DNA from: Sphingopyxis fribergensis
GTDB lineage: Bacteria > Pseudomonadota > Alphaproteobacteria > Sphingomonadales > Sphingomonadaceae
Length of the DNA stretch: 64,000 bases
Assembly (NCBI RefSeq): GCF_000803645.1
Contig: NZ_CP009122.1
Coordinates: 2,828,501-2,892,500 of the forward strand
Direction: 5' to 3'
Position 1 is the first letter of the stretch. Every line of letters begins with the position of its first letter. The position numbers and the translations under genes were made by a program. Below, in pieces: positions 16,295 through 47,323 of this stretch. The notes beneath the pieces were generated by a model that worked only from the letters and a program-made list of their open reading frames with translations, ran no database searches and was not told the DNA's origin.

Positions 16295-16300
16295 AAATCG

Positions 16301-22469: not shown

Positions 22470-22845
22470 CTAGGCCGCGTTGACAAAAGACTTCAGCCAT
22501 AGCCGCGTGGCGGCGAGGTTTAGGAAGCTCTCGAACGAGAGAAGGGTTTTGTCATATCGAGTGGCGATGCGTCGTTGCTGTTTGAGCTTTCCGAACATGC
22601 GCTCGACGCGGTTGCGGTCCTTGTAACGGCGATAGTCGGGATGCTCTGGCACCTTGCGGTTCGAGCGGGGCGGGATGATCGGCAGGATGCCCCGGGTCAG
22701 CAGGCTTTCCCGGAAGCGATCACCATCATAGCCCTTGTCCGCGAGCAGCGCCTTGGGTGTGGCGACGGGGATCGCCATCAGCGGTTCGGCAGCGGTGTAA
22801 TCAGAAGCCTCGCCGCCGGTCAGGATGGCCGAGAGTGCTTTCCTT
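22470..22845 (-). mobile_element. IS5-family remnant (C-terminal transposase half)
   Basis: On the minus strand the frame ILTGGEASDYTAAEPLMAIP continues through ALLADKGYDGDRFRE and YKDRNRVERMFGKLKQQRRI to a stop at 22470: the second Asp and catalytic Glu parts of an IS5/IS427-type transposase. The N-terminal half is missing: homology fades near 22845, about 100 bases before the next IS relic. The 3' end is displaced by IS701, which inserted at its stop codon. Inactive. Confidence 0.8.
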
Positions 22846-22919
22846 GACGATGGAAGCCATCTGGATCATAAAATCACCAGCGCCGATCACCCTCGGCGTA
22901 ACGAGACCTGCCGGCCTTT

Positions 22920-23504
22920 TCACGCTATGCCTTCCCAACATAGGACGTTGTCGGACCAGATATGCTCGGGTGGCCCATGCTCGGTGAACAGATCGGCGAG
23001 GACGTCGATGACGTCGTTCGACCGGAACCGCCGCAGCGGCACCATCGCCAGGCATTCCCGGCTGTGCTCGTCGATGATGTTGAGCATCCGGAACTTCCGG
23101 CCGTTGTGCGTCTGATCCTCGACAAAGTCGTAGGACCACACATGCCCGCGGTGCAGCGGGCGCAACCGGATGCACGACCCGTCGCCAAGCCAGAGCCGGC
23201 GGCGCTTCGGTTGTCTCTTCGGCACCTTTAAACCCTCCCGCCGCCAGATGCGCTCGACCACCGACAGGCTGACCTGCCAGCCGGCATGCCCGAGCAGCGC
23301 ATGGATACGGCGATAGCCGTAACGGCCATAATCCTTCACCAGCGCGATAATGTCGGCCGTCAGGCGCCGCTCGTCGGCATGATCTCTCGGAGGATGCCGC
23401 TGTGTCGAGCGGTGCTGACCGAGCACGCGGCAGGTCCGTCGCTGCGATACCGATAATGCACGACGGACCTGCTCGATCGCCTCGCGGCGACGGGAGGTGC
23501 TCAA
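22920..23504 (-). pseudogene. IS3-family orfB (integrase), C-terminally truncated
   Basis: About 185 residues of the IS3 integrase: the N-terminal HTH_21-like region (YGYRRIHALLGHAGWQVSLSVVERI), the first Asp in WSYDFVEDQTHNGRKFRMLNIIDEHSRECL and the second Asp in HIWSDN. After that the frame runs into unrelated sequence (VLCWEGIA) and stops; the DDE glutamate is absent. Inactive. Confidence 0.85.
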
Positions 23505-23848
23505 AAAGTCAGCTTCGATGCCTCTTGCAGGATCGCCTTGTCCAGTGCGAGGTCCGCGACAAGCCGCTTCAGCCGTGCATTCTCGCGCTCCAAATCCTTC
23601 ATCCGCCGCGCCTGATCAACCTTCAGGCCGCCATATTCCTTGCGCCACCGATACAGCGCCTGTTCGGATATCCCGATCTGGCGGCAAGCCTCGACCGCAG
23701 TCGATCCCCGCCCGACCAGCACATCCGCCTCACGCAGCTTCGCGATGATTTGTTCCGGCGTAAACGTTGACGTCCCATAACTTTCTCCAATTCTCTCGCC
23801 ACAATCGGCTCTCTCTAGAATTGGACCAGTTTTTCCAAGGCAGACCAA
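22944..23848 (-). mobile_element. IS3-family element, truncated at its 3' end
   Basis: The left end (TTGGTCTGCC... read leftward from 23848) matches the fragment at 18704. orfA and orfB follow. The element stops within orfB after codons for HIWSDN near 22944, so the right inverted repeat and the last catalytic Glu are missing. It is inserted next to an IS66 tail at 23858-23898. Confidence 0.88.
23501..23790 (-). pseudogene. IS3-family orfA, start frameshifted
   Basis: The HTH and leucine-zipper part is intact (FTPEQIIAKLREADVLVGRG, EQALYRWRKEYGG, LERENARLKRLVADLALDKAIL, end SKLTF). The normal ATG GGA CGT start is out of frame because the run GTTTACG has one T less than the copy at 18.7 kb. 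Translation in frame would have to come from outside the element. The stop lies in ACTTTTTGA, where a -1 shift into orfB is usual for IS3 elements. Confidence 0.75.
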
Positions 23849-23857
23849 TCTCGCCCA

Positions 23858-23898
23858 ACTCATGCCATGGTCCACCGTGGCCTGAAAACACCGGTTAC
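23858..23898 (+). mobile_element. IS66-family right-end tail
   Basis: The last codons of tnpC (LMPWSTVA, stop) and the terminal repeat ending TGAAAACACCGGTTAC match the right end of the intact IS66 at 54210-54244 almost base for base. Everything upstream has been replaced by the IS3 relic. Confidence 0.8.
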
Positions 23899-24074: not shown

Positions 24075-25070
24075 TCAGGCTGCAAGTGGCGGTGCAGTGT
24101 GCGTATCCCAAAGGGCAAGAATGCTGCGGAGTGCGGTTACAAAGGCCAAAGGCTGATCGAGCATCAGATGGTGACGGGCTTCAGGCACCGCGATGATCGG
24201 AATGTCACCTCCACCCAGCTCGCGGACGTATTCGGCCGATTCCGGGGTGAAGAGTTGGCTCATACCGCCGTGCACGATGGCCTTCCGGCCCGGTGCCTGC
24301 ACCAGACGCTCGCCCATGGTGAGCCATTCGTTGGGCTTGTTGCTCCTTCGAAAGACCTCGGTTGAAAACTTCCACGTCCACTCGTCTCCATCCTGTCGCA
24401 GGGAATGATAGGCCATGTAGTCCAGAAGGAATGGCTCGCCGACCGGCTGGGGCGGGGAAAGGATGTACCGCTTACGTGCCGTTTCATAGCAGGGATAACG
24501 CTTGCTGGGCTTGTCCGGATCGCCGGAACCAGGGCTTGACCGCCTGAGGTTCCAGTACTCTTCCAGGAGAGCGGGCCGCATGATCATGAGATCGCAAACC
24601 ACCACTCCGGCAAAGGCCTCGGGCCACTGGGTCACGGCTGTCAGGGCTGCGCCCGACCCGAAGCTGTGCGCGATGATTGTCGGCTTTTGGCCATCCGCAA
24701 ACATATTCAGCGCCTCGGCAATCTCGCGAAACTCGCCCCCTCTCGCCAAGAGGTCGGCGCGCCCACGCATGTCGCTGTCGCCCATGCCGGCCAGATCAAA
24801 CGCCACCACGTCATAATCTTCTGCCAGAAACGGTGCAATGAAGGCAAAGCAGCGCGCATGTGCCAGAAAGCCATGGGTCATCAATACCTTGGGCTTGCTG
24901 GGGTCACCCCATCGGAAATAGTGCGCCTTGGCCCCATCTATTTCCACATAACCTTCTTCGCGGGGCACCTTGAGCGCCGAAACGAACCATTCGGGCAGAT
25001 GTGAGCCGTCGCCAGCCCAAACAGGATCAATGTCCACTGGAAAGTCACTTATTCTGAACATCTCATTCAT
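24075..25070 (-). CDS. Alpha/beta hydrolase of the catabolic operon
   Basis: 331 residues from ATG 25070, sharing one base with the stop of the monooxygenase gene (TGATG). The fold is clear: oxyanion strand HGFLAH, FDLAGMGDSD, nucleophile Ser136 in AHSFGSG, and a late His in ARHHLMLDQP. Being coupled to a Baeyer-Villiger monooxygenase, it most likely opens the lactone or ester that enzyme makes, as seen in cyclic ketone pathways. A CoA-thioester or C-C hydrolase role cannot be excluded. It is the last gene of the nine-gene minus-strand operon. Confidence 0.88.
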   Translation of the reverse strand: MNEMFRISDFPVDIDPVWAGDGSHLPEWFVSALKVPREEGYVEIDGAKAHYFRWGDPSKPKVLMTHGFLAHARCFAFIAPFLAEDYDVVAFDLAGMGDSDMRGRADLLARGGEFREIAEALNMFADGQKPTIIAHSFGSGAALTAVTQWPEAFAGVVVCDLMIMRPALLEEYWNLRRSSPGSGDPDKPSKRYPCYETARKRYILSPPQPVGEPFLLDYMAYHSLRQDGDEWTWKFSTEVFRRSNKPNEWLTMGERLVQAPGRKAIVHGGMSQLFTPESAEYVRELGGGDIPIIAVPEARHHLMLDQPLAFVTALRSILALWDTHTAPPLAA

Positions 25071-26704
25071 CAGGTTGCGCTGTCCTTGTTCGCTGGTGTG
25101 CTGGCGGCAAAGCCGCGGTAGGCATCGCGTGCCACATCGCCGCAAATCGCAGCATAGGTCGACACGCTTGGAAAATTGATGAGTTGGCGCTTCTTACCCG
25201 GGATGTTTGCGCCCATGTACCAGGAGTCCGCTTCGGGAAAGAGCGTCATCGCGCCAACCTGAGCGACCATTTCGGTCCAGTCCGCCTCTGCTTGCGGATC
25301 GGCGTCGAAAAGATCGTAACCGTTGTTTCGCAGCCAGACCATGAAATCGCAGATCCAGTCGCCCTGCATTTCCGCGCTTGTCGGGCCGTTGGAAAAACCC
25401 GAGGGGCTCAGGGGTCCGTAAGCGAACAGCATGTTGGGGAAACCCGATACCGCCATTCCCAGATAGGCGCGCAGCCCGTTGTACCAAGCTTGCGACAGTG
25501 ACAGGCCGCCCCTGCCGGTGATGTTCATGTCGATTAACCCGCCCCGCCCCGCGTCGAAGCCGGTGGCGAAAACGATGAGATCGCATTCGACCTCGCCGTC
25601 TGCGGTTGTGATTGCGTGCGGCCCGACACGGGTGATCGGGTTTGCCTTCAGATCAACCAGCGCAACATTGTCCTGCGCGAAAATCTCGTAATATCCCTTT
25701 TCCAGCGAAGGTCGCTTCGTGCCGAACGGATGCGGCGGTTCGGATGGGGCGAGTTTCTCGGCCAGATCGGGATCGGCGATCCGCGCGCGAACCTTGTCGC
25801 GCCAGAAATCGTAGGCGTGGCGATTGGCTGCGCGATTGGTAAGCAAGTCGGCGAAGTTGTGGTACCAGAACCTCAATCCGCCTCGCTGCCATAAATCTTC
25901 GAAGTGGGCATTGCGCTCAATCTCGTCGACTTCGAGCGCCGAGACTTCAAGTGACTGGCTTTCAAATCCTCCGCTCGTCTGCCTGCGCTGTTCGAAAAGG
26001 GCAGGATAGCTGTGCTTTTCGCGTTCCTGATCCTCCCGCGTCAGCCGCTCTTGCCGCATCGGCAGGGCCAGGATCGGGGTTCTTTGGAACAGGGTCAGCG
26101 TCGCAGCACGTTTGGCTGCTTCCTGCGCAACCTGCACTCCGCTTGCTCCTGTTCCAATCACGGCAACTTTGCGCCCATCCAGATCAATACCTTCCTGCGG
26201 CCAGCGCGCCGTGTGGCACCATTCGCCCTCGAAATCCTCAATGCCTGGGATGTCCGGGACATACGGCTTCGACGCGAAGCCGAGTGCAGGCAGCAGGAAG
26301 CGTGTCGATATGGTTTGCCCGCCCTCAAGCTGTATGTGCCATAGCCCCGCCCCCGCATCAAAGTCGGCGCATTCGACCCTCGACCCCATCCGCATCAGCG
26401 GCCAAAGGTTCAGCGTATCGCAAACATGACGGAAATAGGCCCTGAGCTCTTCCCAGCCAGGAAAGCGCTCACTCCAGGTCCATGGCTGCCACACTTCGGG
26501 CATCGAGAATTCATAGAGCGGAATCTGCGAATCCACCCGTGCGCCGGGATAGCAATTCCAGTGCCAGATGCCGCCCGGATCGGCCGCCGCATCGACCAGC
26601 AGCACGTTGAACCCGGCGTCACGCAACTTGTGGAGCAGGTAGATCCCGCTGAAGCCGGCACCGACGATCACGGCGTCGTAATCGGGCGAAGTCTGGGTCG
26701 TCAT
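25070..26704 (-). CDS. Type I Baeyer-Villiger monooxygenase
   Basis: 544 residues from ATG 26704 (ATGA overlap with the synthetase gene). It has the FAD site GAGFSG (15-20), the BVMO fingerprint FEGEWCHTARW (158-168), the NADPH site GTGASG (184-189) and the late FATGFD. Such enzymes insert oxygen next to a ketone, giving an ester or lactone; length and motifs match the cyclohexanone/steroid/phenylacetone group. With the following hydrolase and the divergent P450 it implies that a cyclic or branched ketone is an intermediate of the pathway. Confidence 0.94.
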   Translation of the reverse strand: MTTQTSPDYDAVIVGAGFSGIYLLHKLRDAGFNVLLVDAAADPGGIWHWNCYPGARVDSQIPLYEFSMPEVWQPWTWSERFPGWEELRAYFRHVCDTLNLWPLMRMGSRVECADFDAGAGLWHIQLEGGQTISTRFLLPALGFASKPYVPDIPGIEDFEGEWCHTARWPQEGIDLDGRKVAVIGTGASGVQVAQEAAKRAATLTLFQRTPILALPMRQERLTREDQEREKHSYPALFEQRRQTSGGFESQSLEVSALEVDEIERNAHFEDLWQRGGLRFWYHNFADLLTNRAANRHAYDFWRDKVRARIADPDLAEKLAPSEPPHPFGTKRPSLEKGYYEIFAQDNVALVDLKANPITRVGPHAITTADGEVECDLIVFATGFDAGRGGLIDMNITGRGGLSLSQAWYNGLRAYLGMAVSGFPNMLFAYGPLSPSGFSNGPTSAEMQGDWICDFMVWLRNNGYDLFDADPQAEADWTEMVAQVGAMTLFPEADSWYMGANIPGKKRQLINFPSVSTYAAICGDVARDAYRGFAASTPANKDSAT

Positions 26705-28314
26705 GATGCGGCAGTCAGGCTCTCGGCAATTGCCTTCGCCGTTGCGTAGTCGGCCTTGCCGTTCGATGCGCGCAGGGGGGTATTCGTTGGATATATGGCC
26801 TTCGGCGTCTTGTATCCTGCCAACTGCCCCCGCACATGATCCTTGACGGCTTGCTCGTCGAACGGAGCGTCGACGCTGAGGTGGACAACAGCGGTGACGG
26901 CTTGGCCCCATTTCTCGTTCGGCACGCCCACGACCAGCGCGTCACCAATGGCGGGATGGGTCTTGAGAATCTCCTCGACTTCCTCGGGGTAAACTTTCTC
27001 GCCAGCAGTGTTGATGCAGACGCTGCCACGGCCCAGCAAGGTCAGGCTGCCATCGGCCTCGACCATGCACCAGTCGCCGGGAATCGAATAGCGGACCCCA
27101 TCGATTGTGCGGAACGTCTTGGCGGATTTTACGGGATCCTTGTAATATCCCGCCGGGATCGCCCCCATGAGAGCGATAAATCCCGGTACGCCGCTTCCCG
27201 GCGTCACTTTCCGGTCGTTTTCGTCAAAGACATCGCAGAATTCGCCAATCGCAAATTTTGCGGTGTTGGTGCCCCCTTGCGCGGTTGTGATGGAGCGGCC
27301 GAAGCCGAGCCCTTCGGAAGCGCCGAAGCTGTCCATCAGCACCACCTGGGGGATATGCTTGCACAGTCCAGCCTTGACTTCCTTGCTCCACATCACGCCG
27401 GATGAAACGATGGTAACGAGGCTGCTGGTATCCCAGCGGCCGGGATTCTCGTCCAGCGCTTGCAGCATCGGCTTGGCAAATGCATCGCCCACAATTGCGA
27501 TGCTTTGCACCTTGTGCTTATCAACCGTTTCCCACAATTCCGTCGCATCGAAGGACGGGTCTGCAAGTGTAACGATGGCGCCGCCCGACATAAGTGTGCC
27601 GATCGCGGTGATGAAGCCGGTCCCGTGCATCATCGGGCAGGATGGCAGGGTGCGGTTGCCGGGCCCTTGACTTGTGATCAACGCGACGTGTTCTTCGAGT
27701 GTCTGAGGAACGGGGGCGAGCAGCTTCTGGGCCTCGAGCTGTGCTTTGCGCATTTGGTCGTGATGCCACATCACGCCCTTGGGCATGCCCGTCGTGCCGC
27801 CGGTATAGATGAAGAGCTGATCTTCGGGAGAGCGCACTATGCCGAGCGCCGATCCGTCGCCTTCTTGCGCGAGTGTCTCGTAAGGGATCGCAAAAGGCGC
27901 GATTTGCGAAGCCTCGCCAATTTCCACAAAGGTGTGAACTTTCTCGAGCCGATCCTTGAGCTCGACGATACAGTCGCGGAATTCCGAACTGTAGACGATC
28001 ACTTCGCTATCGGAATCGTCGAAGATGTAGAAGACCTCCTCGGCGACATAGCGGTAATTGATGTTCACATGGATCAGGCGCCCCTTGAAGCAGGCTGCCA
28101 TCAACTCGCCGTATTCGGGTCGGTTGCGCATATAAAAGGCAACCTTGGCCCCATTGCCGGCTCCGCGCTGCCGAAGCGCGCGGGCGACATTGTTCGAACG
28201 TCCGGACATTTCGGGCCAGGTAATGATCCGGTCACCGTGGATCAGGGCTGGCGCATCCTTTGGCATGACAGGCTCGAAAGCGTCGAGAATGTCGCCGAGA
28301 TTCCAGTCGGTCAC
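26701..28314 (-). CDS. Acyl-CoA synthetase (AMP-forming)
   Basis: 537 residues. The adenylation core motifs are intact: P-loop YTGGTTGMPKGVMWHHDQ, DSFGASEG, and the C-terminal YSIPGDWCMVEADG and GRGSVCINTAGEKVYPEEVEE hinge, with the catalytic Lys near the end (ASNGKADY). It activates a carboxylic acid as its CoA thioester. The sequence style resembles the FadD enzymes of steroid and terpenoid degradation rather than housekeeping FadD. It overlaps the monooxygenase gene by four bases. Confidence 0.92.
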   Translation of the reverse strand: MTDWNLGDILDAFEPVMPKDAPALIHGDRIITWPEMSGRSNNVARALRQRGAGNGAKVAFYMRNRPEYGELMAACFKGRLIHVNINYRYVAEEVFYIFDDSDSEVIVYSSEFRDCIVELKDRLEKVHTFVEIGEASQIAPFAIPYETLAQEGDGSALGIVRSPEDQLFIYTGGTTGMPKGVMWHHDQMRKAQLEAQKLLAPVPQTLEEHVALITSQGPGNRTLPSCPMMHGTGFITAIGTLMSGGAIVTLADPSFDATELWETVDKHKVQSIAIVGDAFAKPMLQALDENPGRWDTSSLVTIVSSGVMWSKEVKAGLCKHIPQVVLMDSFGASEGLGFGRSITTAQGGTNTAKFAIGEFCDVFDENDRKVTPGSGVPGFIALMGAIPAGYYKDPVKSAKTFRTIDGVRYSIPGDWCMVEADGSLTLLGRGSVCINTAGEKVYPEEVEEILKTHPAIGDALVVGVPNEKWGQAVTAVVHLSVDAPFDEQAVKDHVRGQLAGYKTPKAIYPTNTPLRASNGKADYATAKAIAESLTAAS

Positions 28315-28371
28315 ATCAGTTCTCCTCTGCGAACGGGGCGGCTCTGGCGTGCGCTATCCCCGGAAGAAATA

Positions 28372-29463
28372 TCACGCAGCTTTGGTCCAGCCCTGAAGTG
28401 CCGCAGCCTCCGCCCGGACCGCTTCTGGCCCACCCAAGACCTGCCGGTCGAATCCGATCCGTTTGAACCAGTAGTGCAGGCCAAGCAGGTCGGTGAATCC
28501 CATTCCGCCGTGTACTTCGGTGGAAGTGCGTGCGACAAATCGATGGACCTCGGCCGTGTGCGATTTCGCATGGCAGGCGACCAGCGATGCCTCGTTCGGC
28601 ACCGCGTCGAAGGCGTGGGCGGCGTACCAGACGAGCGAACGGCACGGTTCATGACGCGCGGCCATCTCGGCGCACATATGCTTTACGGCCTGGAAACTGC
28701 CGATCAGGCGGCCGAACTGTTCGCGCTGGCCAGCATAATCGACAGCCTTTTCGATCATCGCCTGACCTGCGCCAAGACTGTCGGCGGCCAGGATAACACG
28801 GCCTGCATCACGCAACCGGGCCGTTGCAACTCCCCCATCATCAGCCAGTGGTTCCGCTTCGGCCCCGTCAAACCGCAATTCCCCGACGCTGCGGGTGCGA
28901 TCAATGGTAGTCAACGCGATAGCCTTCAGGCCCGACGCCTTGGCACCGACAAGGTGCAGCCTGCCACCGGAATCGGCGACAATGTAGGCATCATCTCCTT
29001 CGAAATCGAGCGCGAACAGGGCGGTGCCGTTGAGCTTCCCGCCGGCAGAGGAAACTCCCGCGCCGTCGCGTACCTCGATCGTCTCGGAAATCGCGACACC
29101 GACACGCGCCTCGCCGCTCGCTATCTTTGGCAGCCAGTGGGCCTTTTGCTCCTCGTTGCCAGCTTCGCGCAAGGCGATCGGTGCGAGAACCTGACTGGCG
29201 AGAAACGGCACCGGTGCGACCGCATAGCCAAGCTGTTCCGCCACCACCGCCGCGTCGAGCAAGGTCATGCCGAGCCCGCCATGCTCTTCGGGGACGAGCA
29301 TTCCGGCAACGCCCAGATCGTGGAGGGCGCGCAACACCTGGTCACTCAACGGATTGTCCCGCTCCGCACATTCGCGGACGTGACTGAGCGGGCTGGTATC
29401 GGCGAGGCACCGCGAAACGGCGTCGCGCAACATCTGCTGGTCCTGCGAAAGTCCAAAGTCCAT
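28372..29463 (-). CDS. Acyl-CoA dehydrogenase, shorter subunit of a likely heteromeric pair
   Basis: 363 residues with the ACAD fold: N-terminal helices (QDQQMLRDAVSRCLAD), VPEEHGGLGMTLLDAAVVAEQLG, and C-terminal YAGQREQFGRLIGSFQAVKHMCAEM and STEVHGGMGFTDLLGLHYWFKR. It starts within the stop codon of the preceding ACAD gene (TGATG). Two unlike ACADs of this size encoded together match the alpha2beta2 enzymes of steroid side-chain beta-oxidation (ChsE type), in which the FAD site is shared between subunits. The pairing here is inferred from gene order and length. Confidence 0.92.
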   Translation of the reverse strand: MDFGLSQDQQMLRDAVSRCLADTSPLSHVRECAERDNPLSDQVLRALHDLGVAGMLVPEEHGGLGMTLLDAAVVAEQLGYAVAPVPFLASQVLAPIALREAGNEEQKAHWLPKIASGEARVGVAISETIEVRDGAGVSSAGGKLNGTALFALDFEGDDAYIVADSGGRLHLVGAKASGLKAIALTTIDRTRSVGELRFDGAEAEPLADDGGVATARLRDAGRVILAADSLGAGQAMIEKAVDYAGQREQFGRLIGSFQAVKHMCAEMAARHEPCRSLVWYAAHAFDAVPNEASLVACHAKSHTAEVHRFVARTSTEVHGGMGFTDLLGLHYWFKRIGFDRQVLGGPEAVRAEAAALQGWTKAA

Positions 29464-30683
29464 CAGTCTGCTCCCTGCTTCTGACGCGCCATGTCCGCGG
29501 GGTTCGGCTCACGTGGCATTTCAAGGCCGCGTTCGGCGATGATGTTCTTCTGGATCTGAGCGGTCCCGCCGCCGATGATAAGACCGAGTTGGAACATATA
29601 GCTCCATTGCCACGCCCCGCCGTCCCGCTCACGCGGGCTGTGGTGATAGAGTATGCCCAGTTCGCCCATGGCGTCGATTGCCAGCGCGGATATCTGGTGA
29701 GCGAGTTCACAGCTTTGCAGCTTGACGATCAGCTTCGCCATGCCGCCCGGCTCTCCCCTAAGGCTGTTCGAAAGGATCCGCATCCCATTGTATTTCATCG
29801 CCGCCACTTCGGCCTGAAGTGCCACCAACCGGTCGCGCAGTACCGGATTGTCGATCGCGCGACCCTGGCCCAAACGCTCTTCCTGCATCAGTGCGATCAG
29901 CGCCTGCAGCCGGTTTTCGAGCGCGTCGGGATCGCCCAGCATTCCGCGCTCATGGCCAAGGGTTGCATTCGCGACGAACCAGCCCTGGCCCCGCTGGCCG
30001 ACGATATGGTGCATCGGGACCCGCACATCGGTGAAGAACGTCTCGTTGAACTCGGCGTGACCGGTCATCGTCTTCAAGGGGCGAACCTCGATGCCCGGCG
30101 TGCCCATCGAAAAGATCAGGTAGGAAATGCCGCCATGCTTGGGTGCGTCAGGCTCGGTCCTGACCAGGCAAAAGATCATGTCTGCCTGCTTGGCGGTGCT
30201 GGTCCAGATCTTCTGGCCATTGATAACAAACTCGCCGTTTTCGATGTGCGCGCTGGTCTTGAGGTTGGCGAGGTCCGACCCGGCACCGGGTTCGGAATAG
30301 CCCTGGCACCAGACAATATCGCCTTTCAACGTGGGTTCGATCCAGCGCCGTTTCTGTTCCTCGGTGCCGAGTTCGAGCAGGGTCGGCACGAACATCGAGA
30401 TTCCCTGATTAGCAAGCCCGCCCGCCACCCTGGCCCGCGCAAATTCCTCTGCGATGATGCGCGATTGGAGAATGTCCGGCTCGGCTCCATAGCCTCCATA
30501 CTCCTGCGGGATCGTTCGCGCGGCATACCCATGCTCGATCAACAGCTTCTGCCATTCGACCGCCTTGGAGGAAGGTCGGGCCGCCCGGTCAGCAGAAGGC
30601 GGCGCGAGATGGCTATGCGCTTCGATGAAAGCCCGCACTTGCTTGCGGAAGACATCGTATTCGGGCCCGTAATCAAGATCCAT
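29463..30683 (-). CDS. Acyl-CoA dehydrogenase, longer subunit of a likely heteromeric pair
   Basis: 406 residues from ATG 30683. Typical features: IPQEYGGYG, WCQGYSEPGAGSDLANLKTSA (flavin-binding), FVINGQKIWTS, and the end GGGTAQIQKNIIAERGLEMPRE. It oxidises an acyl-CoA to the enoyl-CoA, passing electrons to ETF. It ends one base into the partner ACAD start and begins eight bases after the DUF35 stop, inside the same operon. A longer start at 30734 would overlap DUF35 and is not favoured. Confidence 0.93.
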   Translation of the reverse strand: MDLDYGPEYDVFRKQVRAFIEAHSHLAPPSADRAARPSSKAVEWQKLLIEHGYAARTIPQEYGGYGAEPDILQSRIIAEEFARARVAGGLANQGISMFVPTLLELGTEEQKRRWIEPTLKGDIVWCQGYSEPGAGSDLANLKTSAHIENGEFVINGQKIWTSTAKQADMIFCLVRTEPDAPKHGGISYLIFSMGTPGIEVRPLKTMTGHAEFNETFFTDVRVPMHHIVGQRGQGWFVANATLGHERGMLGDPDALENRLQALIALMQEERLGQGRAIDNPVLRDRLVALQAEVAAMKYNGMRILSNSLRGEPGGMAKLIVKLQSCELAHQISALAIDAMGELGILYHHSPRERDGGAWQWSYMFQLGLIIGGGTAQIQKNIIAERGLEMPREPNPADMARQKQGAD

Positions 30684-30690
30684 AACGCTT

Positions 30691-31152
30691 CTAACTTTCA
30701 CGCAGGCGGAAAACAGGAAGGCGGAAGTCCTCACCGATCAGTTCGAACTCCACTTCCACCGGAAGATCGAGCGCCAGGCGCTCGTGATCGCAACCAATCA
30801 GGCGCGTGGCCATGCGCACGCCCTCTTCCAATTCCACCACCGCCGCCACGAAGGGAATTTCGGCGGCAAAAGCCGGGTGGAGGGCTTGGTGGGTAACGGT
30901 CCAGGAAAACAGTGTGCCCTTGCCGCTGCTGCGTTCCCAGGAAAATTCCGGCGCGCCGCACTTTGCGCACATATAGCGCGGCAGGTGGCGGAAGCAGCCG
31001 CAACCACTGCAGCGCTGGAAATAGAGATTGCCGTCCTGGCACCGCTTCCAGAATTCCTGCTCAACCGGGTCTTGCGGGCGAGGTCGCGGTTTGGGCGGCG
31101 CAACCTGCGCGGAGGGCCGCATTTTGGGAGGCAGATCGCTCTCGCTGCTCAT
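30691..31152 (-). CDS. DUF35 (Zn-ribbon/OB-fold) partner of thiolase-like protein
   Basis: 153 residues. A rubredoxin-like zinc ribbon (CSGC ... CAKC, about 48-70) precedes an OB-fold ([34 protein letters not shown]). The gene overlaps the thiolase-like gene by four bases. DUF35 proteins bind CoA and pair with thiolase superfamily members; in steroid degradation the DUF35 part of ChsH2 forms the aldolase with Ltp2. This protein is a stand-alone DUF35, without a MaoC-like hydratase domain. It probably acts as the CoA-binding subunit of the neighbour. Confidence 0.9.
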
Positions 31153-32339
31153 GCAAACCTCCTGAGAATGGCAATGCTTCCATCGCCAAGGTCACCCCAG
31201 CCGGTCACAAGACCAGTTTGGGCTCCCAGCACCTGGCGCTCGCCGCAGTCGTGACGAAGCTGGCGCACTGCCTCGACCACGTGGTTGAGTCCCCAGACAT
31301 GCGCCTCACTGAGCAAGCCGCCATGGGTGTTGATCGGATAGCGGCCACCCAGCTCAATCTGGCCATTGGCTACGAATTCGGCCTGTGCTCCCGGTTCGCA
31401 ATACCCCATCGCTTCCAGTTGCAGCAAAACGACATAGGTAAAGCAGTCGTAGATCTGCAGGAAATCCATGTCCTCGCGCTTGACGCCCGCCATGTCGAAA
31501 GCGCGCGGGGCAGCATAGCTGAGGCCAATCTTGAAGGGATCGGGCCGCGAGGGGATGTCGTCGGCAGGATAGGGGTGACCTTCCGAGGCACCGGCGATGC
31601 TGACGGGCACATGCGGCATATCCCTGGCCCGATCCATTCGCGATATGACAACCGCGCAAGCCCCATCGGTTTCAAGGCAGCAATCGTAAAGGCGGAAGGG
31701 CTCGGATATCCAGCGCGCCGAATGATAGGTTTCCGCGTCGAGTTCGCGCCCATAGGTAAAGGCGCGCGGATTCAACTGCGCGTGACGCCGGCAGGCTAGC
31801 GCTACCGCTGCCATCGCATCCGCGCCCACGCCGTAAAGCTTCGAGTGACGCGTCGCCAGCCAAGCATACATCTGCACCGGCAGGAACACACCATAGGGGA
31901 TGTAATAGCCCTGGATGGTATTGGTCAGCGTGTTCATGTTCATCGCCCGAGTGGGCGGGGCACCCGGCTTGGGCCTGAGGGCGGAATAGCCGTTCCAACC
32001 GAGCGTCACCAGCACGTGATCGCAAAGCCCGCTGGCGATCGCCATTGCCGCGTTCTGCAGCGCCGTCGTCGGGCTGGCGCCGCCCATGTGAACGGTGGCC
32101 GCATAGCGCAGCACATCAATGCCGAGATTGGCGGCCATTTCCTCCGAGGTCGTATAGATCGGCGGCGGCACCATGCCGTCGATGTCGCAAGGTTTCAGCC
32201 CGGCATCTGAGATTGCGCGGCGCGAGGCTTCCAGCATCATGTCCACCGCAGTCCGTTCGGTGCCCTTGACGAATGCGGTTTCGCCCACACCGGTTATGGC
32301 GGCCTTGTCGGCAAAGGATAAGGTCTGCGAAGCGTTCAT
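31149..32339 (-). CDS. Thiolase-superfamily protein lacking the nucleophilic Cys (aldolase-like)
   Basis: 396 residues with the thiolase fold ([54 protein letters not shown]). In biosynthetic and degradative thiolases the loop at residues 84-92 holds the acyl-accepting Cys; here it reads HMGGASPTT, with no Cys. The same loss is known in Ltp2, which with a DUF35 partner performs a retro-aldol cleavage of a beta-hydroxyacyl-CoA side chain. The overlapping DUF35 gene supports that role. An SCP-x-like thiolase or an uncharacterised condensing enzyme are alternatives. Confidence 0.88.
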
Positions 32340-32363
32340 ACAGCGTACCCGTCTTGCCGCAAT

Positions 32364-33506
32364 TCAGGAATAGAATCTGGCATCGGCCAGCGCCCTTTCG
32401 GCCCCTTCGACAAGATCGCGCATGACCTCTGCCGCTGGACGGATCGAATGGATCAATCCAATTCCCTGCCCCGCGAAGCCGGGCATGATATCCTTGCGCT
32501 GAGCCTTTATGCCCGAAGCCATGACCGGCCCTGAAATCATCGACTGGTAAGGCATCGGAAGCGGCTCCTTGCCCGCCGCAACCCAAGCATCGGCCCATTT
32601 GTTGCGGATCATGCGCGCAGGCTTGCCGGTCAACGAACGGCTAACGACGGTATCTGCATCGCCGCCGTCGGTTATTGCTTCCTTTTGGAACCGTTCAATC
32701 CCTGCCTCTTCGGTTGCCAGGAACGCCGTTCCGACCCACGCGCCCAGAGCGCCCAGCATCATCGCTGCGGCGACTCCGCGGCCATCGGAGATTCCACCTG
32801 CTCCGATCACGGGAACCCGATCGCCCACCGCGTCGACTACCTGCGGAATCAGCGAGAAGGTTCCGATCGGGGAGTTGTGCCCGCCGCCATCGTGGCCCTG
32901 CGCCACAATCATGTCGATGCCGTAATCGACCACCTGCTGGGCGTGCTTGACCTTGCCGATCACCGCCATGACCCTGGTGCCATTGGAATGAAGGCGGTCC
33001 ATCCACGGTCCGGGATGGCCGAGGCCGGCGGCATAGACTGGCACCTTTTCCTCGATTACCACTTCCATCTGCGCCTCGAAAAACTCCCGCGTGAACAGCT
33101 GCGGACCGCCCTTGCCCATTTCCGGCGCGCCAGCCGCGCGCATGGCCATTGCGGCATCCACTTCGGGCAGATCCTCGCGTTCCATGAAATCGCGGGTGAA
33201 CTGCTGATATTCGCCAAGCAGTGCCATCGGGTTTTCGGGCGAGGCGCCGCTCTGCGGTGCCGAACCGCGCCTGACGGAGGCAGGCAGAAGGGTGTCGACC
33301 CCAAATGGCTTATCGGTCAGTTCGCGGGTCTGGCGGATCCAGCTGCGCAACTGGTCTGGCGAGCAGGCCGCAGCGCCAAGAACGCCAAGTCCCCCGGCAT
33401 TCGATACTGCGGCCGCGAGCGCGGGGACACTCGCCCCGCCCATTCCGGCCAGAAGGATCGGGTATTCGATCCCGAGAATTTCGCATATGCGGCTCTTGAG
33501 TGCCAT
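32364..33506 (-). CDS. Nitronate monooxygenase-family FMN protein (possible CoA-ester reductase/desaturase)
   Basis: 380 residues from ATG 33506, preceded by GGAGAGG. It is a TIM-barrel flavoprotein: ILGIEYPILLAGMGGASVPALAAAVSNAGGLGVLG at the start, IVAQGHDGGGHNSPIGTFSL and VIGAGGISDGRGVAAAMMLGALGAWVGTAFL for FMN phosphate binding. The family includes nitronate monooxygenases, FabK-like reductases and IpdC, which acts on CoA esters in steroid ring degradation. Given the operon, an acyl-CoA oxidoreductase role is more likely than nitroalkane detoxification. First gene after the regulator. Confidence 0.88.
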   Translation of the reverse strand: MALKSRICEILGIEYPILLAGMGGASVPALAAAVSNAGGLGVLGAAACSPDQLRSWIRQTRELTDKPFGVDTLLPASVRRGSAPQSGASPENPMALLGEYQQFTRDFMEREDLPEVDAAMAMRAAGAPEMGKGGPQLFTREFFEAQMEVVIEEKVPVYAAGLGHPGPWMDRLHSNGTRVMAVIGKVKHAQQVVDYGIDMIVAQGHDGGGHNSPIGTFSLIPQVVDAVGDRVPVIGAGGISDGRGVAAAMMLGALGAWVGTAFLATEEAGIERFQKEAITDGGDADTVVSRSLTGKPARMIRNKWADAWVAAGKEPLPMPYQSMISGPVMASGIKAQRKDIMPGFAGQGIGLIHSIRPAAEVMRDLVEGAERALADARFYS

Positions 33507-33550
33507 CGTAATACCCTCTCCATCCAGCGCCACCCACCGGCGCCCGTTTT

Positions 33551-34291
33551 TTACGTCTGTCCCCACCTGACCTTCTGGGACACAAGCTCAGGGCTTCTCT
33601 GTGCGAGATAGGAGGCGGAGCCCGCCACGAGACGCGCCATAGCCTGCCGCGCTCCTTCGGCATCGCCCTTGCGCACAGCTTCAAGGACGCGGCGCAAGAA
33701 ACGCAACTGGACCGCACGCTCTTGCGCCGAATACCCCAGCGAGAGCGAGAATTCGCGGGTAAGCATATGCAACGCGGAAGTCAGAAGGCCGAAAAGCGGA
33801 TTGCCGCTGGCCCAGCCGAGCATATCGTGAAAACGGCGATTCAGTTCCTCGAACTGGCTGCTCGCTTCGTTTCGCTCCAGCTCTTTGAGGCAATCGGCAA
33901 GTGCGCTCAGATCACCCGTGGTCGCGCGCTGGGCGGCATAGGCTGCAACATCCGCCGCAATCGCTTCGCGCAATTCGAGCAAGCCCCTCAAGTCCGCCTC
34001 CATGAAATGCAGGATCAGCGAGAGGCTGTTCGCGAAGTCGCCAGTCTGCGGGCGTGCGACCACCGGCCCGCCACCGCGACCTAACTGAAGATGGATAACG
34101 CCCTGAAGTTCAAGGAAGCGAAGCGCTTCGCGCAAGGTCGCTCGGGCGACATCGTATCGCGCAAGCATTTCGTCCTCGCGCGCCAACCTGTCGCCCGCAA
34201 CATGCGCCCCGGCTTCGATATCGCGTACGATATCCTGCGCAAGCGTGAGCGCACGCTTGGCTTTCCTCGAATCATCGACCTTCGGTTGCAT
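33551..34291 (-). CDS. GntR-family regulator with FCD domain
   Basis: 246 residues: an N-terminal winged helix (GDRLAREDEMLARYDVARATLREALRFLELQGVIHLQ) and an all-helical FCD ligand domain (about 95-230) with LLELREAIAADVAAYAA and NRRFHDMLGWASGNPLFGLL. FCD regulators sense carboxylates or acyl-CoA-like effectors. It lies between the catabolic operon, 45 bases ahead of the flavoprotein gene, and the divergent P450 gene. A 24-bp palindrome 20 bases upstream of its start is the likely operator, so it probably autoregulates and controls both arms. Confidence 0.92.
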   Translation of the reverse strand: MQPKVDDSRKAKRALTLAQDIVRDIEAGAHVAGDRLAREDEMLARYDVARATLREALRFLELQGVIHLQLGRGGGPVVARPQTGDFANSLSLILHFMEADLRGLLELREAIAADVAAYAAQRATTGDLSALADCLKELERNEASSQFEELNRRFHDMLGWASGNPLFGLLTSALHMLTREFSLSLGYSAQERAVQLRFLRRVLEAVRKGDAEGARQAMARLVAGSASYLAQRSPELVSQKVRWGQT

Positions 34292-34310
34292 CTCTGGGAA
34301 TCGCTCCTCT

Positions 34311-34334
34311 GATAAAACCTTATAAGAGTTTATC
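34311..34334. promoter_or_regulatory. Palindromic operator in the GntR/P450 divergent promoter
   Basis: A 24-bp inverted repeat with outer arms GATAAA (34311-34316) and TTTATC (34329-34334) around the self-complementary core CTTATAAG (34319-34326), all sharing one centre of symmetry. It starts 20 bases upstream of the GntR start codon and about 150 before the P450. Size and place fit a FadR/GntR-type operator. Confidence 0.7.
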
Positions 34335-34481
34335 GGATGACATGTCCAGCATCAGTCTATGAAGTCTGCAGTGCGGTCAAATGTCGCAACAATCCTTATA
34401 AGCTTTATTGACCATACCCTGCGAAACATCTACCTGTTTGATAGCAAGGTGAGTCTGCTTGCCTGGGATGGAGGACGAGAC

Positions 34482-35744
34482 ATGAGCATCGACACGATGG
34501 AGCTGGATACTGCCGGAAAAGTTGCAGCCATTCCGATCGACGAAATTGATGTCGCACGGCCGAGTCTTTTTCAGCAGGACACGATCGGCCTGTATTTTGA
34601 CCGGCTGCGCAAAGAGGAGCCGGTCCACTATTGCCGCGAAAGCTATGTTGGGCCTTACTGGTCGATCACCAAGTTCGACGATATCATGGCTGTCGACACC
34701 AACCACAAAGTCTTTTCGTCGGAGGCAAAGCTCGGCGGTATCGCCATTCAGGACATGCATTCGGTGGAAGGCGCGCTCGAACTTGAAATGTTCATCGCTA
34801 TGGATCCTCCAAAGCACGACCAGCAACGCAAGGCCGTCACCCCCGCTGTAGCGCCGTCCAACTTGCTGTTGCTCGAACCGACAATCCGCGAACGAGCGTG
34901 TCAGATTCTCGATGATCTGCCGATAGGCGAGGAATTTGATTGGGTTGACAAGGTCTCAGTTGAATTGACCACGATGACCCTTGCTACCCTATTCGATTTC
35001 CCGTGGGAGGAACGCCGCAAGCTCACGCGCTGGTCCGACGTCACAACGGCCGCCCCTGAAACCGGCATCGTCGAATCGTACGAAGCGAGGCGTGAAGAAC
35101 TCATCGAGTGCGCGATGTATTTCAAAGGACTGTGGGAGCAGCGCATCAACGAAGAACCGAAGAACGATCTGATTTCCATAATGGCGCATTCCCCGGCGAC
35201 ACGGGATATGCCCTTCCTCGAATTTCTGGGTAACCTGCTGCTGCTGATCGTGGGCGGCAACGACACCACGCGCAATTCGATAAGCGGCGGTGTGCTGGCG
35301 CTCAATCAGAACCCCGATGAATATCGCAAACTGAATGACGACCCTTCGTTGATCGCCAGCATGGTGCCGGAAATCATCCGCTGGCAGACGCCGCTGACTC
35401 ACATGCGCCGCACTGCGCTGCAGGACTGGGAGATTGGCGGCAAGCAGATCAAGAAGGGCGACAAGGTCGTGATGTGGTACCTGTCGGGCAACCGCGACGA
35501 AACGGTCATCGACCGGGCTGACCGGTTCATCATCGACCGCAAGAATCCGCGCCATCACCTGTCATTCGGTTATGGCATCCATCGATGCATGGGTAACAGG
35601 CTGGCAGAACTGCAGTTGCGGATCATCTGGGAAGAAATTCACAAGCGGTTCGCCAAGGTCGAAGTGACCGGCGAGCCCGAGCGCCTTTTCTCAAACCTTG
35701 TGCGCGGGATCACCAATCTGCCGGTGCGGCTGCACGCGCGCTGA
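34482..35744 (+). CDS. Cytochrome P450, CYP153-like
   Basis: 420 residues from ATG 34482, preceded by GGAGG. I-helix LLIVGGNDTTRNS, ExxR region PEIIRWQTPLTHMRR, and the haem loop LSFGYGIHRCMGN with Cys near residue 369. The phrases NDTTRNSISGGVLALNQNP, KGDKVVMWYLSGNRDE, HRCMGNRLAELQLRIIWEEI and SNLVRGITNLPVRL are those of CYP153, soluble hydroxylases of alkanes, alicyclics and terpenes. A ferredoxin gene follows 29 bases later as electron donor. Usually a ferredoxin reductase gene is adjacent; none is seen here. Confidence 0.93.
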   Translation: MSIDTMELDTAGKVAAIPIDEIDVARPSLFQQDTIGLYFDRLRKEEPVHYCRESYVGPYWSITKFDDIMAVDTNHKVFSSEAKLGGIAIQDMHSVEGALELEMFIAMDPPKHDQQRKAVTPAVAPSNLLLLEPTIRERACQILDDLPIGEEFDWVDKVSVELTTMTLATLFDFPWEERRKLTRWSDVTTAAPETGIVESYEARREELIECAMYFKGLWEQRINEEPKNDLISIMAHSPATRDMPFLEFLGNLLLLIVGGNDTTRNSISGGVLALNQNPDEYRKLNDDPSLIASMVPEIIRWQTPLTHMRRTALQDWEIGGKQIKKGDKVVMWYLSGNRDETVIDRADRFIIDRKNPRHHLSFGYGIHRCMGNRLAELQLRIIWEEIHKRFAKVEVTGEPERLFSNLVRGITNLPVRLHAR

Positions 35745-35773
35745 TTTGCTGAAGCAGAAATACGGAGTGTATG

Positions 35774-36100
35774 ATGGTCAAAGTGACGTTCGTATCCAGC
35801 GATGGAACGCGGCGGGAAGTCGAAATTGCCGAGGGCGAAACCGCACGCGAGGCGGCGCTCTTCAATGATGTACCGGGCATCGACGGCGATTGCGGCGGTG
35901 TCTGCGCCTGTGCGACCTGCCATGTCCATGTCGATCCGGCCTGGATCGACAGGGTTGGTCGCCTGGTCGAAGGGGCAGCGGAGGCAGAGCTTCTGCAATT
36001 TGCCGAAGGTGCCAACGAATACAGTCGCCTCGCCTGCCAGATACCCATGGTGGAAGGAGTGGAAGGTTTGATTTTGCACGTTCCCGAGCAGCAATACTGA
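35774..36100 (+). CDS. [2Fe-2S] ferredoxin (adrenodoxin/putidaredoxin type)
   Basis: 108 residues (ATG 35774; a start one codon earlier is possible; GGAG lies just upstream). Cluster ligands appear as DCGGVCACATCHVHV, with the fourth Cys in RLACQI. This is the P450-reducing class of vertebrate-type ferredoxins. It follows the CYP153-like gene and should deliver electrons to it from a reductase encoded elsewhere. The next gene on this strand is a broken acyl-CoA dehydrogenase. Confidence 0.95.
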   Translation: MVKVTFVSSDGTRREVEIAEGETAREAALFNDVPGIDGDCGGVCACATCHVHVDPAWIDRVGRLVEGAAEAELLQFAEGANEYSRLACQIPMVEGVEGLILHVPEQQY

Positions 36101-36166
36101 CCAGACAGAGCGCAGCCCTGTCGTGCGCGTGCGGCGTCGCAAATTCAGTTTTGAACGGAGGTTTCA

Positions 36167-36290
36167 GTGCCAACTCAGCTAGAACCTGATGTCTAGACGA
36201 GCGAAGACGCATTTCGCACCGAAATGCGGCAATTCCTCGCCGCCCATTTCCCTGACGAATTAAGGGGCGCGGGCAATATGCTGGCCGGGC
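36167..36290 (+). pseudogene. Acyl-CoA dehydrogenase, 5' remnant
   Basis: A good ribosome-binding site (ACGGAGG) and GTG 36167 open a frame reading VPTQLEPDV, a TAG stop at 36194, then TSEDAFRTEMRQFLAAHFPDELRG: the N-terminal helix pattern of an ACAD. The homology ends where an IS3 relic begins (about 36285-36290). Both the in-frame stop and the truncation inactivate it. It lay in the P450-ferredoxin operon, so the plus-strand arm has lost at least one gene. Confidence 0.65.
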
Positions 36291-36911
36291 CCATTGGCAG
36301 CTTCGGCTTGTGGATCATCCTGGCCGACGCGCATCCGGAAGCTTCGAGGGACAGCTCCAGCGTGTCGGTGACATCCCCGGCCCGCATGGTGGTACACAGC
36401 TTCCAAAGGATGACATAACGGGAGAAGTCGTCGAGCACGGTCGACAGGTACACCAAGCCCCAGCCGATGATCTTGAAGTAGGTGAAGTCGGTCTGCCACA
36501 TCTCGTTCGACCGCGTCGTCTTGGTGTGGAACCCGTCGGCGGCCTTGATCACGATGAAGGCCGGACTGGCGATCAGGTCATGGGCTTTCAACATACGGTA
36601 AACCGTGGCTTCCGACACGAAGTAGCGCTTCTCGTCGGTGAAGCGCACCGCGAGCTCGCGGGGTGACAGGTCGGTTGTATCCAACGCCATGTCGATGATC
36701 TGCTGCTGGATATCATCGCAGATGCGGTTCCACACCCGCCTCGGGGCCGATGGCCGATCCTCCAGCGCCTCCGGCCCGCGCTCGAGGTAGCGGTCGTACC
36801 AGCGTTAGAAGGTCCGGCGCGGGATGCCCAACTGCTCCAGCGTGCGCTTGGCCGGCAGGTGCGACTGCTCGACGATCCGAATGATCTCCAGCTTCTCGGA
36901 TGCGGGTTACC
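36290..36911 (-). pseudogene. IS3-family orfB, with stop codon and truncated
   Basis: The minus strand reads SEKLEIIRIVEQSHLPAKRTLEQLG then IPRRTF, a TAA stop near 36808 where a Tyr codon is expected (TFYRWYDRY in relatives), then RWYDRYLERGPEALEDRPS and the integrase core (MWQTDFTYFKIIGWGLVYLSTVLDDFSR). The end with the second Asp and Glu is lost. Dead by at least two lesions. Confidence 0.82.
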
Positions 36912-37280
36912 TCATTCGTCGTCGGCCCTATCCGCGATCATGCTTTTTTTGAGCAACCGGTTTTCCAGCGTCAGATTGGCCACGCATTCCTTAAGGGCAC
37001 GGGCTTCGCGGCGCAGGTCGTGCACCTCGCCGGTGGTCGCGGCACGGGCGGTGTCGCCCGCCAAGCGCCGCTTGCCCGCCTCCATGAACTCCTTCGACCA
37101 CGTGTAATACAAGCTCTGGGCGATGACATCCTTGCAGCACAGCTCGGCGATGCTGTCCTCGCCGCGCAGGCCTTCCAGCACGATCCTGATTTTGTCCTCT
37201 GCAGAGAAGTGCCGGCGCGTCGCACGCCGTATGTCCTTCACCAGCCGCTCAGCAGGGGCCTTCGGCGCCGATTTTTTCAA
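36912..37280 (-). CDS. IS3-family orfA (HTH protein)
   Basis: 122 residues, apparently intact. It has the HTH_Tnp_1 helix-turn-helix (RRHFSAEDKIRIVLEGLRGEDSIAELCCKDVI, then SLYYTWSKEFMEAGKRRLAGDTAR) and a C-terminal leucine-zipper-like segment (VHDLRREARALKECVANLTLENRLLKKSM). It binds the ends of its element. Since orfB is broken, the element cannot transpose by itself. Confidence 0.85.
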   Translation of the reverse strand: MKKSAPKAPAERLVKDIRRATRRHFSAEDKIRIVLEGLRGEDSIAELCCKDVIAQSLYYTWSKEFMEAGKRRLAGDTARAATTGEVHDLRREARALKECVANLTLENRLLKKSMIADRADDE

Positions 37281-41140: not shown

Positions 41141-41201
41141 TTTCTCTCTCCCAGCTTCGTTGCACATTGTCGAAACGGAGGGCCTAGCGCGGCCAGACGG
41201 G

Positions 41202-42749: not shown

Positions 42750-42804
42750 TGCGCCCTCCTACCCTTCCCGACCAGCGGCTGGAGGCCGCGGACGGGAGCG
42801 CGAC

Positions 42805-45042: not shown

Positions 45043-45072
45043 GGTCACTCTCCCCATCTTGTTATCGCAATT

Positions 45073-47285: not shown

Positions 47286-47323
47286 ATGGAGAATGACAAG
47301 CATCGGAAAATCGGAGTCGGATC

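What the first reader, a model, noticed from the sequence alone, without database searches (positions are those of the whole stretch)
24075..36290. Compact catabolic island joining CYP153, Baeyer-Villiger and steroid-type side-chain chemistry
Seen: eight overlapping or closely spaced minus-strand catabolic genes with a divergent P450/ferredoxin arm and one FCD regulator. Known: CYP153 enzymes hydroxylate alkanes, alicyclics and terpenes; BVMO plus hydrolase opens cyclic ketones; paired ACADs with DUF35/thiolase-like aldolase shorten branched side chains in steroid degradation. Inference: the island degrades a cyclic isoprenoid or similar alicyclic compound by a route that mixes modules normally found in different pathways. 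I do not recognise this combination as a described pathway. No alcohol dehydrogenase is included, so one step must be encoded elsewhere.
Basis: partly seen in the sequence, partly recalled or inferred. Interest (0 to 1): 0.75.

Follow-up and report, generated by a model that had tools for sequence, protein, structure and literature searches.

The report
Mobile ring- or branch-cutting catabolic island
A compact set of genes, shared in nearly the same order by many marine and soil bacteria and sometimes carried on transferable plasmids, looks like an undescribed assembly line for eating ring-shaped or branched oil- and plant-derived molecules: it appears to chop off a side chain to leave a ketone and then cut the ketone open.

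Summary
In detail: eight overlapping or closely spaced minus-strand catabolic genes behind a GntR/FCD regulator, with a divergent CYP153 P450/ferredoxin pair. I add a MarR regulator, a second alpha/beta hydrolase and a thioesterase to its right, IS fragments on both sides, and a second copy on the 209-kb second contig of the same genome. All 11 core genes lie in the same order in 58 of 67 testable named loci (Sphingopyxis, Erythrobacter, Qipengyuania, Novosphingobium, Hyphomonas, Henriciella and others) and on two checked conjugative plasmids. The 'thiolase' (RefSeq: 'transporter') lacks the thiolase nucleophile. Its YDCF/His signature, kept in 67 of 67 distinct sequences at 46% identity or more, points to a retro-aldolase paired with DUF35. 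Best explanation: P450, ligase and acyl-CoA dehydrogenase pair prepare a beta-branched or ring-attached acyl-CoA; after hydration the aldolase releases acetyl- or propionyl-CoA and a ketone; the Baeyer-Villiger enzyme and hydrolase cut that ketone. The substrate is unproven, and the hydratase and dehydrogenase are not in the island. The steroid comparison fits the chemistry but fails membership. Listings of ten searches of an open library showed no described pathway with this gene set.

The parts
24075..25070 (-). alpha/beta hydrolase (ester/lactone hydrolase candidate), ATG at 25070
   Evidence: Abhydrolase_6; AHSFG elbow; start
25070..26704 (-). type I Baeyer-Villiger monooxygenase, ATG at 26704
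   Evidence: BVMO fingerprint FEGEWCHTARWP and GGIWHWNCYPGARVD; best PDB match 6jdk BVMO 699 bits
26701..28314 (-). acyl-CoA synthetase, PRK07798 family
   Evidence: NF005863 681 bits, above cut-off 543
28372..29463 (-). small acyl-CoA dehydrogenase subunit, no HER/LER/YEGT base motif
   Evidence: relatives IpdE2 (below cut-off), Tcur3481 (6wy8)
29463..30683 (-). large acyl-CoA dehydrogenase subunit, candidate base E262 (HER; ORF numbering from 30734), ATG at 30683
   Evidence: best PDB 4x28_A and 6wy8_B; HER aligns with HER of 4x28
30691..31152 (-). DUF35 / ChsH2-C partner, Cx2C-x10-Cx2C zinc ribbon
31149..32339 (-). SCP2-thiolase-fold aldolase candidate (YDCF 297-300, GG 86-87, H347)
   Evidence: best PDB 6ok1 Ltp2; motifs
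32364..33506 (-). NMO/FabK-like flavoenzyme (IpdC-like candidate), ATG at 33506
   Evidence: PF03060 240.8 bits; FabK matches
33551..34291 (-). GntR-type regulator with FCD domain
34311..34334 (.). candidate operator dyad GATAAA-N12-TTTATC with CTTATAAG core in the divergent spacer
   Evidence: CTTATAA in 10 of a chosen 22 spacers, shuffle mean 0.6, maximum 3
34359..35744 (+). cytochrome P450, CYP153A type (true start may lie further in)
   Evidence: 66% identical to CYP153A7
35771..36100 (+). 2Fe-2S ferredoxin
   Evidence: Fer2
36193..37280 (-). IS fragment (rve piece 36193-36735 and HTH_Tnp_1 piece 36912-37280) between ferredoxin and the right arm
37771..38289 (-). MarR regulator, divergent to the next two genes
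   Evidence: relatives in other islands
38337..39215 (+). second alpha/beta hydrolase, recurrent island partner
39212..39622 (+). hotdog (4HBT) thioesterase, recurrent island partner
21117..23875 (.). left border: DDE_5 transposase, IS5-like and IS3-like pieces

Best explanation
A mobile catabolic island for hydrocarbons or acids in which a ring or a methyl branch sits on the beta-carbon and blocks ordinary beta-oxidation. Proposed order: (1) CYP153 with its ferredoxin hydroxylates a terminal carbon of a side chain; alcohol and aldehyde oxidation come from elsewhere or from the P450 itself (inferred). (2) The ligase makes the CoA thioester (family shown, substrate inferred). (3) The unlike ACAD pair desaturates at the branched beta-carbon (family and base position shown, reaction inferred). 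(4) A hydratase not in this island adds water, giving a tertiary beta-hydroxyacyl-CoA (inferred). (5) The thiolase-fold protein with DUF35 does a retro-aldol cut, releasing acetyl- or propionyl-CoA and a ketone (active-site pattern shown, reaction inferred). (6) The BVMO turns the ketone into a lactone (cyclic ketone) or ester (methyl ketone), and the hydrolase(s) open it (families shown, substrates inferred). (7) The NMO/FabK-like flavoenzyme adjusts the oxidation state of an acyl-CoA ring or chain intermediate, as IpdC does (inferred). The FCD protein senses an intermediate and controls the divergent promoters (inferred). Alkyl-cycloalkanes or naphthenic acids are my first guess for substrate (about 0.5), cyclic terpenoids second (0.25), acyclic beta-methyl isoprenoids third (0.25).
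For: Aldolase: it has YDCF at 297-300 where TcLtp2 has YDHF and CtSal YDCY (Tyr and Cys shown catalytic in CtSal, PMC12329534 passages); Gly87 stands where a thiolase-like protein elsewhere in this genome (L036) and ones in two other loci have Cys; H347 stands at TcLtp2 Tyr344; all kept in 67 of 67 distinct sequences at 46% identity or more, one of them identical to the window's. DUF35 has the Cx2C-x10-Cx2C ribbon. For the large ACAD 4x28 and 6wy8 are the two best solved relatives, for the small one they rank sixth and fourth; HER is in the large subunit only. The BVMO has both fingerprints, and this genome's only two BVMOs at E<=1e-40 lie in its two islands. The link recurs outside the tight family: 4 BVMOs in 3 of 17 distant aldolase loci against 0.36 expected (Poisson P 5e-4), one with both ACADs, DUF35, NMO and BVMO (L175); the two most similar of the 80 BVMOs lie 1.2 kb (G437) and 24 kb (G615) from an aldolase gene. 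A Rhodococcus plasmid has enoyl-CoA hydratase, aldolase and DUF35, with a BVMO, a hydrolase and a short AMP-binding gene 7-10 kb away. An enoyl-CoA hydratase sits beside the aldolase/DUF35 pair in L168 and beside the regulator, where CYP153 is missing, in L133.
Against: No hydratase in the island: the genome's MaoC matches (3) and crotonase match places (15) all lie outside the window, none on the second contig. The aldolase carries Sal/SLP-type YDC, and Sal makes an aldehyde from a secondary alcohol; the characterised enzyme acting on a tertiary (C17) alcohol, Ltp2, uses YDHF plus Tyr, so a ketone product is not proven by the motif. Of 17 distant aldolase loci, 14 have no BVMO at E<=1e-60 in the stretch fetched (two of these, L164 and L165, have a 27%-identical flavoprotein, not counted). 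Catabolic genes cluster anyway, so the co-localisation P value is generous. I found no experiment on any member in the papers seen.
Confidence: 0.5

Rival explanations
1. Ring first: CYP153 hydroxylates a cycloalkane ring, an outside dehydrogenase makes the ketone, BVMO and hydrolase open the ring as in cyclohexane degradation, and the ligase, ACAD pair and aldolase then shorten the resulting branched or dicarboxylic acid.
For: P450 plus BVMO plus hydrolase is the known logic for cyclohexane (recalled); CYP153 enzymes act on alicyclics (recalled); the ACAD subunits also resemble pimeloyl-CoA dehydrogenase subunits pimC (227 bits) and pimD (116 bits), below cut-off; Zn-alcohol dehydrogenases lie beside some distant aldolase loci (L161, L162, L175).
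Against: No alcohol or hydroxyacid dehydrogenase in the island; plain dicarboxylates would need a true thiolase, and this one lacks the nucleophile.
Confidence: 0.25
2. Degradation of a sterol or bile-acid side chain, i.e. a sphingomonad version of the igr/ChsE-ChsH-Ltp2 module with accessory genes.
For: The aldolase and the large ACAD are closest to steroid enzymes among solved structures (identity of these entries recalled), the small ACAD nearly so; the DUF35 matches the ChsH2 Pfam models; ligase belongs to PRK07798.
Against: No MaoC domain on the DUF35 or in the island (the genome's three MaoC matches lie elsewhere); YDCF/His instead of YDHF/Tyr; CYP153A instead of CYP125; HsaD above its cut-off in 0 of 17 island-bearing genomes (weak, since none of 14 control genomes passes the cut-off either and proteobacterial TesD may fall below it); steroid modules do not carry a BVMO (recalled).
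Confidence: 0.08
3. A looser co-transferred set: an alkane-activation arm (P450/ferredoxin) and an unrelated acyl-CoA arm that share only a regulator region.
For: G294's second copy (L042) and L133 keep the acyl-CoA arm without the P450; the P450 arm is on the other strand.
Against: The P450 is present in 66 of 67 testable loci, and the BVMO is inside the acyl-CoA operon, its start overlapping the ligase stop.
Confidence: 0.12

Closest known systems
Steroid C17 side-chain removal: ChsE1E2, ChsH1H2, Ltp2 (igr operon; C. testosteroni ORF40-44, PMC12502768, abstract seen)
   Same: unlike ACAD pair, DUF35 partner, thiolase-fold aldolase; removes a short acyl-CoA
   Different: no MaoC hydratase, different catalytic pattern, CYP153 and BVMO added
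Bile-acid aldolase Sal with Shy (PMC12329534, abstract and passages; PMC11321319, abstract)
   Same: YDC motif, Gly in place of the thiolase nucleophile, DUF35 partner
   Different: F not Y after YDC, His not Gln at the second site, C4 not C3H1 zinc ribbon, DUF35 not fused to MaoC
Cyclohexaneacetate route in Arthrobacter CA1 (Ougham and Trudgill 1982; recalled, not seen)
   Same: predicted order: CoA ester, desaturation and hydration at the ring carbon, split to acetyl-CoA plus cyclohexanone, then BVMO and lactonase
   Different: known as biochemistry; I recall no genes; different phylum
Ibuprofen ipf cluster of sphingomonads (PMC9195938, passages seen)
   Same: CoA ligase and thiolase-like retro-aldolase (ipfDE) releasing propionyl-CoA; on a plasmid, flanked by IS6100
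   Different: ring dioxygenase makes the hydroxyl; aromatic product; no ACAD pair and no BVMO (recalled)
CYP153A alkane hydroxylases
   Same: 66% identical to CYP153A7; P450 and ferredoxin adjacent
   Different: in an acyl-CoA/BVMO island, not an n-alkane operon

Membership tests
CYP153A | more than 55% identity to a named CYP153A member (convention recalled) | tested here: met
   270 of 407 aligned positions identical to CYP153A7
Type I BVMO | FxGxxxHxxxW[P/D] fingerprint and two Rossmann motifs (recalled) | tested here: met
True SCP2 thiolase | nucleophilic Cys | tested here: not met
   Gly87 at the aligned place; L036 of the same genome has Cys
Ltp2 aldolase | YDHF plus second catalytic Tyr | tested here: not met
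   YDCF and His347
Sal aldolase | Tyr and Cys of YDCY, no nucleophile Cys, Gln at second site, C3H1 DUF35 | tested here: not met
   Tyr, Cys and Gly met; F for Y, His for Gln, C4 ribbon not met
Retro-aldolase function | cleaves beta-hydroxyacyl-CoA | not testable with these tools
   needs assay
ChsE-type ACAD heterotetramer | two adjacent unlike subunits, base in one only | tested here: met
   HER in large, no HER/LER/YEGT in small subunit; complex formation not tested
Steroid side-chain (igr) module | MaoC hydratase with DUF35 | tested here: not met
   DUF35 of 153 aa, no MaoC; genome MaoC matches lie elsewhere
Cyclohexane/chn pathway | cyclohexanol and 6-hydroxyhexanoate dehydrogenases with BVMO and lactonase (recalled) | tested here: not met
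   no dehydrogenase of that kind among the ORFs scanned in the island

The most novel reading that the evidence does not exclude
A general 'retro-aldol plus Baeyer-Villiger' bypass of the beta-branch block in beta-oxidation, run by a new YDCF/His aldolase subfamily, spread by conjugative plasmids and IS elements through Alphaproteobacteria and reaching Rhodococcus. It would supply the missing genes for the cyclohexaneacetate-to-cyclohexanone route and an alternative to the carboxylation (Atu/Liu) route for beta-methyl isoprenoids.
Probability: 0.35. Interest if true: 0.8.

Novelty: new variant of a known kind. Interest (0 to 1): 0.6.

Why it matters
Alicyclic and beta-branched hydrocarbons are among the persistent parts of oil and naphthenic-acid waste, and aerobic routes for them have few assigned genes (recalled). 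A conserved, transferable gene set with a predicted order of steps makes this directly testable, gives a marker gene (annotated 'transporter' in the five RefSeq plasmid records found) for surveys, and offers a new aldolase and BVMO pair for biocatalysis.

Tried and rejected
Ordinary thiolase: rejected on the missing nucleophile. Coq4-family gene as the missing hydratase: it sits just before the aldolase in 40 of 80 named loci and in the second-contig copy here, but is absent from the window copy and from the other 40 of 80, so it cannot be an obligate step; no assigned role. Steroid ring genes by HsaD: 0 of 17 above cut-off, judged inconclusive. The 231-aa plus-strand ORF at 37494 was first treated as a gene; it is probably spurious, the MarR gene being on the other strand at 37771-38289. 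Palindromic operator: a dyad at my threshold in 10 of the 43 spacers examined, mostly close relatives of the window; CTTATAA in 10 of a chosen 22. Stop codons counted in aligned stretches for the genes I looked up again lie at the very ends, i.e. the natural stop or upstream of the true start; those of G437's BVMO did not reappear there. Structure prediction and the large protein search were not used; no tree was built. Literature: ten library searches listed no paper that I recognised as joining these genes; seven papers were opened, in abstract or passages only. Most subscription papers are not held, so absence is weak.
Full report
Observation. The minus strand carries, in order of transcription, a GntR/FCD regulator, an NMO/FabK-like flavoenzyme, a thiolase-fold protein, a DUF35 protein, two acyl-CoA dehydrogenases, an acyl-CoA synthetase, a Baeyer-Villiger monooxygenase and an alpha/beta hydrolase; a P450 and a 2Fe-2S ferredoxin run the other way. 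Four neighbouring pairs overlap by 1 or 4 bases, which suggests one translationally coupled operon. IS remnants lie on both sides.

Conservation. In 296 genomes of the order, 17 have the aldolase at 87% identity or more, 19 loci in all; the next matches are at 41% or less. I took stretches for the 18 loci other than the window's: all 18 have the nine minus-strand genes, 17 of 18 also the P450 and ferredoxin; L042, the second copy of G294, lacks those two. A scan of named genome contigs gave 167 relatives, of which the best 80 were kept, all at 87% or more. Of these, 67 had enough flank to judge and 13 were dropped; 58 of 67 have all 11 genes in the same order. The nine exceptions: six lack a detectable ferredoxin match, two lack BVMO and hydrolase (L075, L124), one lacks P450 and ferredoxin (L133). 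Many of the 80 are near-identical, and many are MAGs, so they are not independent. Isolates such as Henriciella mobilis carry the aldolase at 97%, while this genome's own second copy is at 88%, which points to horizontal transfer. In 72,556 plasmids five carry a relative: Croceicoccus naphthovorans, Blastomonas, Sphingobium cloacae and S. yanoikuyae at 87-88%, Rhodococcus sp. DMU1 at 57%; three are typed conjugative and two mobilizable. I read the surroundings of three of the five: the Croceicoccus and S. yanoikuyae plasmids, both conjugative, hold all 11 genes, the Rhodococcus one a different arrangement. dN/dS of the window genes against four other copies is 0.05-0.28 in 42 of 44 comparisons, so the genes are under purifying selection.

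The aldolase. The best solved relative is TcLtp2 (6ok1, 239 bits), then 4u4e 'Thiolase' (209), then 9myr (166), which I take for CtSal from its YDCY motif. The alignment puts YDCF 297-300 on YDHF of TcLtp2 and His347 on its Tyr344. In CtSal, Tyr and Cys of YDCY are the catalytic pair and the thiolase nucleophile is a Gly (PMC12329534, abstract and passages). In the island protein residues 86-87 are GG; a thiolase-like protein at C1:2897132 of this genome has Cys at the aligned place. Among 67 distinct sequences at 46% identity or more, one of them identical to the window's, all 67 keep YDCF, GG and His347 and none has a stop. At 41% and below the pattern varies: YDHF/Tyr in two, YDCF with Tyr in three, YDCF with His in one, other motifs in two, and three thiolase-like sequences near 25% with QDTE and Cys. 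This looks like a third group beside Ltp2 and Sal; a tree was not built. DUF35 has the ordinary Cx2C-x10-Cx2C ribbon.

The ACAD pair. The large subunit aligns with 4x28_A and 6wy8_B and keeps HER; the small subunit has none of the base motifs searched. By recall the Glu of that HER is the base in ChsE4, with an equivalent in isovaleryl-CoA dehydrogenase, so this is the arrangement used for branched or bulky acyl-CoAs.

Why BVMO belongs. If the aldolase cuts a tertiary beta-hydroxyacyl-CoA the product is a ketone, which ordinary beta-oxidation cannot use and a BVMO can. Independent co-occurrence supports this. In 16 genomes with more distant aldolases there are 80 BVMO matches at E<=1e-60 in about 70 Mb; 4 of them fall in 3 of the 17 aldolase loci I took (L161, L167, L175), against 0.36 expected. 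Two more loci, L164 and L165, have a 27%-identical flavoprotein that I did not count. Genome sizes are rounded and catabolic genes cluster in any case, so this is support, not proof; 14 of 17 loci have none. L175 has ACAD pair, aldolase, DUF35, BVMO, a NUDIX protein, NMO and a second BVMO at 33-53% identity. In the window genome the only two BVMOs at E<=1e-40 are those of the two islands.

What is missing. No hydratase is encoded here. Among relatives, an enoyl-CoA hydratase stands beside the aldolase/DUF35 pair in L168 and next to the regulator in the P450-less L133, and near the aldolase in Rhodococcus DMU1. The genome has 15 crotonase match places and 3 MaoC matches elsewhere, so one may serve in trans. 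No alcohol dehydrogenase and no ferredoxin reductase was among the ORFs scanned in the island.

NMO. IpdC, a FabK-like flavoenzyme, helps oxidise a ring acyl-CoA in steroid ring degradation (PMC5380842, passages). The island enzyme is in the same broad family; a similar role is an inference.

Substrate. CYP153A enzymes favour alkanes, cycloalkanes and some terpenes (recalled). Names and sources of some hosts hint at oil, diesel, naphthalene or algae. That fits alkylcycloalkanes or naphthenic acids, terpenoids, or beta-methyl isoprenoids, and does not decide among them. The cyclohexaneacetate route of Ougham and Trudgill is recalled; the library listings showed no paper on its genes.

Verdict. 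A real, conserved, mobile and, as far as the library listings show, undescribed catabolic island. It works like steroid side-chain removal followed by ketone opening, but it fails the membership tests for the Ltp2, Sal, igr and chn families.

Noticed in passing
G000 second contig, C2:144181-158166 (L038:2181-16166): Second, diverged copy of the whole island (core proteins 63-88% identical, second hydrolase and thioesterase 53-55%) on the 209-kb second contig, with a Coq4-family gene between aldolase and NMO that the window copy lacks.
   Followed up: partly
L038:10342-11139, L046:11633-12436, L183:11207-12004: Coq4-family protein (HDLYH...E zinc-type motif, recalled) inside a catabolic operon, just before the aldolase in 40 of 80 named loci; no ubiquinone role is obvious there.
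   Followed up: partly
L066, L069, L076, L122, L182, L183 island edges: NUDIX hydrolase gene recurs at island edges; TonB receptors and multidrug-type efflux genes lie beside some islands.
   Followed up: no
window 39908-50165: Another likely catabolic group: two beta-lactamase-fold esterase-like genes, a carboxylesterase, a TonB receptor, a 434-aa protein with no Pfam match (45149-46453), a GntR regulator and an AMP-binding ligase.
   Followed up: no
window 55143-62464 and 10845-18663: Mla-type lipid transport genes and efflux-type genes on both sides of the island region, with IS66 (52714-54231) and other transposases.
   Followed up: no
NZ_CP050953.1 about 232-258 kb (L181): Rhodococcus sp. 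DMU1 plasmid: hydratase, aldolase, DUF35, and two BVMO genes that give the same identity to the query, among many IS elements; an actinobacterial version of the module.
   Followed up: partly
RefSeq plasmid records H1-H5: The aldolase gene is annotated 'transporter' in all five, apparently a propagated mis-annotation.
   Followed up: no
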